From contig NZ_JAKZKW010000001.1 in NCBI RefSeq assembly GCF_022808695.1, positions 248,001-312,000 on the forward strand: a stretch of 64,000 bases of DNA, given 5' to 3'. Position 1 is the stretch's first letter, and the number at the start of each line of letters is the position of its first letter. Origin of the DNA: Fundidesulfovibrio soli (GTDB lineage: Bacteria > Desulfobacterota > Desulfovibrionia > Desulfovibrionales > Desulfovibrionaceae). Shown here piece after piece: positions 33,727 through 38,784 of this stretch. The notes under the pieces are model-generated. The model had not been told where the DNA came from, ran no database searches, and saw only the letters and a list, made by a program, of their open reading frames with translations. The position numbers and the translations under genes are program-made.

Positions 33727-34059
33727 ATGCTGACGACGCAAGCAGCCTGGACGTACCTGATTCTTGCCGGATTGTTCGAGATCGGCTGGCCCGTGGGCCT
33801 GAAGATGACGCACTCTCCCGGCAAGGTGGTGCTCGGGGTGGCCGTGGCCGTCGTCTGCATGGGCCTCAGCGGCTGGCTGCTCTTCCAGGCCCAAAAGGCA
33901 ATTCCCATGGGTACGGCCTACGCCGTATGGACGGGTATTGGCGCGGCCGGGACGTTTCTGGTGGGGCTCATGTTTTACGGCGACCCGGCAGGGTTGATGC
34001 GCATCCTTGGCGTCGCCCTGATAATCGCCGGCGTCGCGACGCTCAAACTTGCATCCTAG
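33727..34059 (+). CDS. SMR-family exporter, SugE/Gdx-like
   Basis: 110 residues with four membrane helices, a small multidrug resistance protein working as an antiparallel dimer. The conserved Glu is Glu18 in LAGLFEIGWPVGLKMT; this pattern, with Trp and Gly-Leu-Lys, resembles the SugE/Gdx guanidinium exporters more than EmrE. The segments FQAQKAIPMGTAYAVWTGIGAAGT are the family core. AGGATTGAGAG precedes the ATG. I looked for a guanidine riboswitch upstream and did not see one. It stands alone. Confidence 0.88.
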   Translation: MLTTQAAWTYLILAGLFEIGWPVGLKMTHSPGKVVLGVAVAVVCMGLSGWLLFQAQKAIPMGTAYAVWTGIGAAGTFLVGLMFYGDPAGLMRILGVALIIAGVATLKLAS

Positions 34060-34455
34060 CGTTGCGCGCGCTAACCTAAGGAACGCCGGTCTTGATTGTA
34101 ACTTTCTAAATCAATTCTATTTATCCATAATCACTTCCCCGTGCCCCTCAAGGGGCCACAGGTGGTCAGCCCGCTGGGTCGTCTTCTCGGCCGTTAACGC
34201 CCGCTGTTTGAGTATCCAGGCAGTTCCGTCCACTCATTTTGCTGCATGCACGCCCAGAGGGCAGGGACACATTGTCCGTTGCATTCATGGCCGCAAACGA
34301 TCGTTGTCCGCCGGTCAACGCGGGAGAGTGGGCGTCTGGGCGCCGCTGGAAACAGGGTCGGGGGCGCAAGCACGACCAACCGCGCGCGGTCCGGTGTGGT
34401 TGGGGCCATGCAGGATGAATGCAGGCGCGTTCGGGCCAGAATTAACCGGGAATCG
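34060..34455. other. Intergenic stretch without a recognisable gene
   Basis: About 400 bases between convergent genes. It begins with an AT-rich patch (34094-34135) unlike the rest of the window and continues with mixed sequence. No frame has a ribosome site or plausible composition, and I see no tRNA-like fold or terminator. Confidence 0.4.
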
Positions 34456-35463
34456 TTAGAACTTGTGGATCTTGACCATGATGATGGCGACCATAGCGAG
34501 CAGCATCATGACCCAGATGATGATCGCTTTGATGGTCATTTTCCGGGCGCGCTTCACATCCCACCAGCTCATGGGCTGGATGCCGTGGGCCAGATAAGTG
34601 GCAACGCTGGCCAGGTTGAGGCCGATGATGTTCACCATGAAGATAATCCCAGCGTTCAGCCCCGCCGCCCAGTGTCCGTGCGCAAGAAGAATGGCCGACG
34701 CGACCAGGGGCGGCAGGATCGCCAGGGAGACCATCACCCCAACCAGGGCCGAGGCCGCTCCGCTGGTGAAGGAGACCACTCCGGCGGAACCCGACGCCAG
34801 GGCCAGGACCACCACGAAGAAGTCCAGGCGCGTCCTGCTTTCGATGGCCGAATTGCCGGTATCCACCGGGATCAGAAGTCCAAGCGCAAGGGCCACCGCC
34901 ACCGCGAGAGATATCCCCTTCACGGCCGACAAGACGGATTTTCGCGCGAGATCCTTGTCGCCGAGGGTGGTGGCGAGGGCGAGGGCCATGTGCGGTCCCA
35001 TGAGCGGCGCGATAATCATGGCCGCGAGGGTTATCACCTCGCTGTTCATGCGCAGGCCGATGAAGGCAACGATGGCGGAAAGCACCACCAGCGCGGCTAT
35101 GGGCCTGGTGAACTGGCACATGTCCTGGGCCTTGGAGTACAGCTCCTCGCGGCTCAGGCGCGCGGAGTTGTTCTGTCGCTTCTTCTTGGCCCCGGTTGGT
35201 TCAGGCTCCACCGGCCTCGGCAGCACCGCCTCAACCGGGTGTATGATGATTCGATAACCTTCCGAGACGTGGAACCGCTTCTCCAGCTTGTCGGTATACG
35301 ATTCGATCTCGTCCATGTCCATGATCGTCTTCACGGACACTTTGCCGTCCTTGAGGATGCTCACCCAGGTGAGGTCGTCCTCGGATGCGGCCGTCTCGAT
35401 GGTCTCCATGGCTTTGTCGTACTCATCCCGGGCGACGATCATCTCGATTTGCCGCAAAGCCAT
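34456..35463 (-). CDS. DUF389 (TIGR00341-like) membrane protein
   Basis: 335 residues. The first 115 or so are soluble, with a ferredoxin-like pattern (MALRQIEMIVARDEYDKAME, VSVKTIMDMDEIE). Residues 120-335 have about six membrane helices and the conserved DUF389 core (ALVVLSAIVAFIGLRMNSEV, ITLAAMIIAPLMGPHMALAL, GSAGVVSFTSGAASALVGVM). Function of the family is unknown. An AGGACGAG lies before the ATG. It is followed by an empty stretch and seems monocistronic. Confidence 0.88.
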   Translation of the reverse strand: MALRQIEMIVARDEYDKAMETIETAASEDDLTWVSILKDGKVSVKTIMDMDEIESYTDKLEKRFHVSEGYRIIIHPVEAVLPRPVEPEPTGAKKKRQNNSARLSREELYSKAQDMCQFTRPIAALVVLSAIVAFIGLRMNSEVITLAAMIIAPLMGPHMALALATTLGDKDLARKSVLSAVKGISLAVAVALALGLLIPVDTGNSAIESRTRLDFFVVVLALASGSAGVVSFTSGAASALVGVMVSLAILPPLVASAILLAHGHWAAGLNAGIIFMVNIIGLNLASVATYLAHGIQPMSWWDVKRARKMTIKAIIIWVMMLLAMVAIIMVKIHKF

Positions 35464-36235: not shown

Positions 36236-36444
36236 GCGCGCCTCCTGGCGGGTTCCGATTCCTTCCCTCTCTAGCACGCCGTTCAGGCCCGTTCAACCTC
36301 AAGCCGTCGGGTACGGCAGCCCATGCGGTGTTTCATCCGGCTGCCTGGCGTTGGCGCATCGTCAAACGCCGGGCAGCGCCCGCAACAGGACGTGCGGCAC
36401 GCTCATCGCCGTACGCCCGTAAACGCAAGCCCAGGCCCCGGGAA

Positions 36445-36765
36445 TTACTGGCAGTACCCCATGCTCCTGCAGATGCTCTCCACGCTCTCGCCCTTGGCGC
36501 GCCTGCTCTTGAGGGCGTTTATGAACTTGGGGCCCATTGTGGAGTAGAACTTCACGCAGGCCTCGCGGTCCGCCGCGGGAAGCAGGGAGCACTGGCGAGA
36601 GGCGTCCACGCTGATATCCTTGGCGTCCGCCGCTGAAGCCTCCACCAGGCGCAGCACCATCTGGCAGGCGACGCACTCCATGTAGTCGCCTGTCTGGGCT
36701 AGGGCCTGGGAAACCATCGTGCCTGTGATCAAAGCCGAAAAAACGGCCAAACGGATGCATTTCAT
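36445..36765 (-). CDS. Small secreted protein with saposin B-type cysteine pattern
   Basis: 106 residues. A cleavable signal peptide (MKCIRLAVFSALITGTMVSQ, cleavage after ALA at about 23) releases an 83-residue domain with six cysteines at 31, 34, 59, 70, 99 and 105. The spacing C-2-C-24-C-10-C-28-C-5-C and the context (YMECVACQMVLRLV, QCSLLP, CVKFYSTMGPKFI, ICRSMGYC) match saposin B-type domains, which fold as five helices held by three disulphides and bind or perturb lipids. Saposin domains are mostly eukaryotic, so this is notable. It stands alone upstream of and divergent from hisH. Function unknown. Confidence 0.8.
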   Translation of the reverse strand: MKCIRLAVFSALITGTMVSQALAQTGDYMECVACQMVLRLVEASAADAKDISVDASRQCSLLPAADREACVKFYSTMGPKFINALKSRRAKGESVESICRSMGYCQ

Positions 36766-36961
36766 GCTGTTTGTCTCCAATTCGCGGCCCAGCGTCGGCG
36801 CGGGATTGTTCCAATGCGCCCAAATGACGCCGGGACAGCCGCGTATACGGCTCTTTGCCCGGCGCATCAACCGGCTGGACAGTGCGGCCCCCCGGGAGGA
36901 GCGGGACGGGGGCCTTGCCTCCAGACGGAAATTCTACTAGCAACCGCCCACGGAGGACACC

Positions 36962-38372: not shown

Positions 38373-38442
38373 GCCGAGCCCCAGACCATCCCATATGAAT
38401 CACAGGCCCGGCACGACCGGGCCTTCGCATCACGGAAACATC

Positions 38443-38784
38443 ATGAGCAACGCCATAGACACGGTCACCGAGCTGCTCTCCCCGCTCGGGCTCAAGGTCA
38501 CGCATTCCTTCGACGACATCTACTTCGTGGAGCACAACCTGTTCCTGGTCATCCAGTCCAAGGATGACAACCTCTTCCTGCTCTGCTTCAACCGGGAGTG
38601 CCCGCCGGACAAGGCGGCGCTCGCCGCCCTGACGCTCTACGCCAAGGCCGAGGACATGGGCCTGGACCTGGGGTTGTCCGGCACCTACGACATGGAGGAG
38701 CTGCCCGGGCAGGAGATCAAGCTTCACTTCCACCCGCAGCAGACCGTAAAGGAAAGCGTTCCCGGGAACTCCCGGACCCACTGA
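38443..38784 (+). CDS. Small hypothetical protein downstream of hisF
   Basis: 113 residues from the ATG at 38443. It is acidic, lacks a signal or membrane segment, and reads like a compact alpha-beta domain (TELLSPLGLKVTHSFDDIYFVEHNLFLV..., YAKAEDMGLDLGLSG). No family recognised. The gap to hisF is 70 bases with no terminator visible, so it could be cotranscribed. Real coding is supported by length, a start site with CGGAAACATC before it, and codon bias like its neighbours. Confidence 0.65.
   Translation: MSNAIDTVTELLSPLGLKVTHSFDDIYFVEHNLFLVIQSKDDNLFLLCFNRECPPDKAALAALTLYAKAEDMGLDLGLSGTYDMEELPGQEIKLHFHPQQTVKESVPGNSRTH

What the first reader, a model, noticed from the sequence alone, without database searches (positions are those of the whole stretch)
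36445..36765. Bacterial secreted protein with a saposin B-type six-cysteine signature
The mature domain shows the exact saposin spacing (C-2-C, 24, C, 10, C, 28, C-5-C) with the hydrophobic pattern between cysteines, after a signal peptide. Saposins are lipid-binding or membrane-perturbing domains found mainly in eukaryotes, and a stand-alone bacterial secreted form could be a lipid carrier, toxin or competition factor. The flanking genes (hisH, DJ-1) give no clue.
Basis: partly seen in the sequence, partly recalled or inferred. Interest (0 to 1): 0.7.

Follow-up and report, generated by a model that had tools for sequence, protein, structure and literature searches.

The report
Bacterial secreted saposin-fold protein
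A sulfate-reducing bacterium and all its sampled genus mates carry a small exported protein with the six-cysteine pattern and predicted fold of saposins, lipid-binding proteins known mainly from animals, plants and protists; its job in bacteria is not yet known.

Summary
Window 36445-36765 (-) encodes a 106-residue protein: a signal peptide, then six cysteines spaced C2C-24-C-10-C-28-C5C. It is a real gene: it has a ribosome-binding site, it is in 7 of 7 sampled Fundidesulfovibrio genomes and one other genus of the family, its cysteines are invariant, and selection is purifying (dN/dS 0.06 for the closest pair). The saposin reading is well supported, though each single score is weak. The family profile finds almost only saposin domains in the PDB (E 0.02-0.09); three controls with cysteines fixed and other columns shuffled find none. 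The mature domain folds with pLDDT 91.7, and its first 15 PDB matches are all saposin-fold proteins (TM-score up to 0.58, no E <= 0.001). Pfam SapB_1/SapB_2 do not reach their cut-offs. It is a single chromosomal gene at a fixed locus in the genus, without a plausible immunity or enzyme partner, and its net charge is near neutral. I favour a periplasmic lipid- or hydrophobe-binding protein over a toxin. The fold is likely; the function is inference.

The parts
36445..36765 (-). gene for a 106-residue exported six-cysteine saposin-fold protein
   Evidence: translation; orthologues in 8 genomes; dN/dS 0.06 for the closest pair
36697..36765 (-). signal peptide, residues 1-23 (MKCIRLAVFSALITGTMVSQALA), cleavage most likely after ALA
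   Evidence: read from the sequence by eye; all orthologues have a hydrophobic N-terminus, and nearly all an AQ junction
36448..36696 (-). mature domain, residues 24-106, with six cysteines C2C-24-C-10-C-28-C5C
36775..36778 (-). ribosome-binding site (GGAG)
   Evidence: read from the sequence; a similar site precedes most orthologues
36430..36442 (-). weak terminator-like hairpin just after the stop codon
   Evidence: one found against 0.5 expected by chance, so not significant

Best explanation
This is a stand-alone bacterial saposin-fold protein. It is made with a Sec signal peptide, cleaved after residue 23, and oxidised in the cell envelope to three disulphides, most likely C31-C105, C34-C99 and C59-C70. 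It then acts as a small soluble helical clamp that binds lipid or another hydrophobic molecule, or touches the membrane surface, in the periplasm, as a housekeeping function of the genus. Shown: the gene, the conserved cysteines, the fold prediction and the genus-wide conservation at one locus. Inferred: secretion, disulphide pairing, lipid binding and the role.
For: Spacing and invariant cysteines. The family profile against 177,635 PDB sequences gives saposin D entries and the acyloxyacyl hydrolase small subunit as the first six hits, E 0.02-0.09; three shuffled controls with cysteines fixed gave no saposin. Pfam 'Saposin' PF20825 matches two orthologues across all six cysteines, E 0.002-0.003, below its cut-off. 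Mature-domain model pLDDT 91.7, helices 2-21, 32-35, 40-66, 71-77. Fold search: ranks 1-15 are all saposins, SP-B or Na-SLP-1; with the full-length model, ranks 1-42 are all saposin-fold. The top viral match is a 'Pro saposin-like type B' protein. The genome encodes a membrane-anchored DsbA-type protein with a CPGC motif. Purifying selection. Mature net charge at pH 7 from -2.3 to +0.8 across orthologues.
Against: No single match is significant by the usual standard: no Foldseek E <= 0.001, TM-scores 0.39-0.58, PDB profile E about 0.02. SapB_1 and SapB_2 do not pass. No lipid enzyme is a conserved neighbour. Lipid binding cannot be shown from sequence, and helix amphipathicity is modest.
Confidence: 0.55

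Rival explanations
1. A membrane-permeabilising antibacterial or anti-protist protein, working like amoebapore or NK-lysin.
For: Saposin-fold proteins include pore formers (PMC5890168, title and abstract), and some bacteriocins adopt a saposin-like fold (PMC6072434).
Against: Saposin-fold bacteriocins lack cysteines (PMC6072434). This protein is near neutral, sits in one copy at one locus in every genus member, shows purifying selection, and has no conserved neighbour that looks like immunity or export.
Confidence: 0.12
2. A cofactor that presents lipid to a periplasmic or outer-membrane hydrolase encoded elsewhere, as saposins do for lysosomal enzymes or the small subunit does for acyloxyacyl hydrolase.
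For: The acyloxyacyl hydrolase small subunit is the only single-sequence PDB match and covers the whole domain. Invariant residues such as PKF and KGE suggest a specific contact.
Against: No hydrolase of lipids is next to the gene in the genus. A metallophosphatase is a neighbour only in the more distant genome G015.
Confidence: 0.18
3. A disulphide-stapled helical protein that reached the saposin pattern independently and has another job, such as a periplasmic adaptor or stress protein.
For: Individual scores are weak; relatives are restricted to one bacterial family in what was searched; SapB Pfam models fail.
Against: Cysteine-fixed shuffled controls lose the saposin matches, so the likeness goes beyond the cysteines.
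Confidence: 0.15

Closest known systems
Saposins A-D (prosaposin)
   Same: Six-cysteine spacing, helical order, size of about 80 residues; saposin D tops the profile search and saposins B and C the fold searches.
   Different: Bacterial, single domain with its own signal peptide instead of a four-domain precursor; Pfam SapB models miss it.
Acyloxyacyl hydrolase small subunit (saposin domain)
   Same: Alignment over the complete domain, all six cysteines in register.
   Different: Not fused to or beside a hydrolase.
Surfactant protein B and hookworm Na-SLP-1
   Same: Fold matches with TM-score 0.43-0.50.
   Different: Sequence identity only about 16-21%.
Circular and leaderless bacteriocins with saposin-like fold (AS-48, lacticin Q)
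   Same: Bacterial, compact helical, saposin-like arrangement (PMC6072434).
   Different: Those have no cysteines (PMC6072434) and no Sec signal peptide (own knowledge); this has six invariant cysteines and a signal peptide.

Membership tests
saposin-fold (SAPLIP) proteins | six cysteines with saposin spacing | tested here: met
   2-24-10-28-5, cysteines invariant in eight orthologues
saposin-fold (SAPLIP) proteins | four to five helix saposin fold | tested here: met
   by prediction only: model pLDDT 91.7 with four helices; the first 15 PDB matches are all saposin-fold, though E > 0.04 and TM-score at most 0.58
saposin-fold (SAPLIP) proteins | sequence similarity to saposins beyond the cysteines | tested here: met
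   PDB profile hits almost all saposin domains, lost in 3 of 3 cysteine-fixed shuffles; E-values only about 0.02
saposin-fold (SAPLIP) proteins | disulphides C1-C6, C2-C5, C3-C4 | not testable with these tools
   model coordinates are not returned; needs mass spectrometry or a structure
saposin-fold (SAPLIP) proteins | binding of lipid or membranes | not testable with these tools
   needs purified protein
Pfam SapB_1 (PF05184) and SapB_2 (PF03489) | score over the curated cut-off | tested here: not met
   no match in any of the eight proteins; SapB_1 finds none in genus members. These are detection models of half-domains, not a structural definition.
Pfam Saposin (PF20825) | score over the curated cut-off of 27 bits | tested here: not met
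   18.5 and 18.0 bits in two orthologues, E 0.002-0.003
saposin-like bacteriocins | leaderless or circular, cysteine-free | tested here: not met
   signal peptide and six cysteines present; the definition is from PMC6072434

The most novel reading that the evidence does not exclude
A true homologue of eukaryotic saposins, fixed in a free-living anaerobic bacterial genus, that carries lipids or hydrophobic molecules across or within the periplasm.
Probability: 0.35. Interest if true: 0.7.

Novelty: new member of a known kind. Interest (0 to 1): 0.5.

Why it matters
Six-cysteine saposins are described almost wholly from eukaryotes, and the known saposin-like bacteriocins lack the cysteines. A conserved, exported bacterial version that the Pfam SapB models miss would widen the range of the fold, offer a small system for testing lipid handling in the envelope of sulfate reducers, and give a seed profile for finding others. 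I could not check how many bacterial saposin-domain entries protein databases already hold.

Tried and rejected
Relatives on plasmids, phages and viral contigs: none. Weak profile hits elsewhere in the order and phylum were rejected as chance: three are part of the reading frame of the ATP synthase gamma subunit, one runs antisense to ATP synthase genes, and one is a frame with a stop on the other strand of a transporter-like gene. Sub-threshold PF05184 hits in two other genomes lie in a TPR-like protein and in a 38-residue frame, rejected. PADLOC and PHROGs: nothing useful. VKOR and DsbB Pfam models do not ring in this genome, which at first spoke against disulphides, but a membrane-anchored DsbA-type protein was then found. 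Pfam's weak UBA_9 and RPAP1_N hits on the protein are below cut-off and implausible for an exported protein. Searching papers for 'bacterial saposin', and for saposin with Desulfovibrio or Deltaproteobacteria, gave nothing relevant.

Full report
The observation. The minus strand at 36445-36765 encodes a protein of 106 residues. The ATG is preceded by a ribosome-binding site, as in most orthologues. The N-terminus has the form of a Sec signal peptide with a likely cleavage after ALA, judged by eye. With composition held, 48 of 200,000 shuffles fit even a loose saposin pattern.

It is a gene. A protein search finds one copy in the window's genome and relatives in 8 of 288 genomes of the family, the window's own included. 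A profile search finds it in 7 of 7 genomes of the genus and in one further genus, G015, at 45-48% identity. All six cysteines and 22 other positions are invariant. Nucleotide comparison gives dN/dS of 0.06 for the closest pair and 0.1-0.3 for most pairs within the genus, with higher and less reliable values for the most distant ones.

Surroundings. In all seven genus genomes the gene lies between the same two blocks: a 2-oxoacid oxidoreductase pair with a sigma-54 type regulator (the latter named by eye) on one side, and hisH-hisF, read divergently, on the other. A DJ-1 family gene is next to it in four. In G015 the context differs: a hemerythrin follows on the same strand and a metallophosphatase is on the other side. 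So the gene is kept vertically in the genus, on its own, without a fixed functional partner.

Is it a saposin? Single-sequence search of the PDB gave one match at E up to 1, the small subunit of acyloxyacyl hydrolase, a saposin domain, E 0.16, with all six cysteines in register. The family profile gave saposin D entries and that subunit, E 0.02-0.09, followed only by one unrelated hit at E 1.1. As a control I kept the cysteine columns and permuted the rest, three times: no saposin was matched. The likeness therefore includes more than the cysteines, for instance the C-S-[LF]-L-P stretch at the third cysteine. Pfam's Saposin model PF20825 matches two orthologues over the whole domain at E 0.002-0.003, below its cut-off. 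SapB_1 and SapB_2 do not match.

Structure. The full-length model is poor (pLDDT 70, signal peptide included), but the mature domain alone gives pLDDT 91.7 and four helices. The top viral match is a protein annotated as saposin-like in Orpheovirus. No single E-value reaches 0.001, so the case rests on the consistency of several weak results.

Disulphides. The genome lacks Pfam-detectable DsbB and VKOR but has a membrane-anchored protein with a DsbA-type domain (Thioredoxin_4, E 1.6e-33; motif CPGC). Its N-terminal membrane part looks like VKOR to the eye, which Pfam does not confirm. Oxidation of the six cysteines in the envelope is plausible, not shown.

Function. Saposin-fold proteins bind membranes or lipids peripherally (PMC8878781). 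Within that kind, one may ask whether this one carries or presents lipid, or kills. Net charge at pH 7 runs from -2.3 to +0.8 across orthologues, whereas many killing members are strongly cationic (own knowledge; amoebapores are an exception). There is no plausible immunity gene, no mobile context, and the gene is in every genus member. I favour a periplasmic lipid or hydrophobe binder. The published bacterial saposin-like bacteriocins lack cysteines (PMC6072434). The only other bacterial saposin domain I found mentioned in the paper library is in surface proteins of Vampirococcus lugosii (PMC8080830).

Limits. Only genomes of the window's phylum could be sampled broadly; the single scan of all bacterial and archaeal species used one sequence and exact peptide patterns, and would miss distant relatives. 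The Pfam-based searches of genomes had no positive control. Hence the restriction to one family is a statement about what was searched. Common descent with eukaryotic saposins is not proven, and origin by horizontal transfer was not tested; the gene's GC (62% against 66% for the window, third positions 85%) gives no sign of recent arrival.

Noticed in passing
window 38395-38784 (+): 129-residue ORF after hisF with no Pfam match; among the compared genomes it is found only at the same place in the closest relative.
   Followed up: partly
window 33727-35463: A small multidrug resistance (SMR) family transporter gene (33727-34059, +) and a DUF389 membrane protein (34456-35463, -); the stretch between the regulator and the saposin-like gene varies between species.
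   Followed up: partly
L032:766-1839 (+) (G000:C1, about 11 kb before the window): Membrane protein fused to a DsbA-type thioredoxin domain; the N-terminal half looks like VKOR by eye, but Pfam's VKOR model does not match it.
   Followed up: partly
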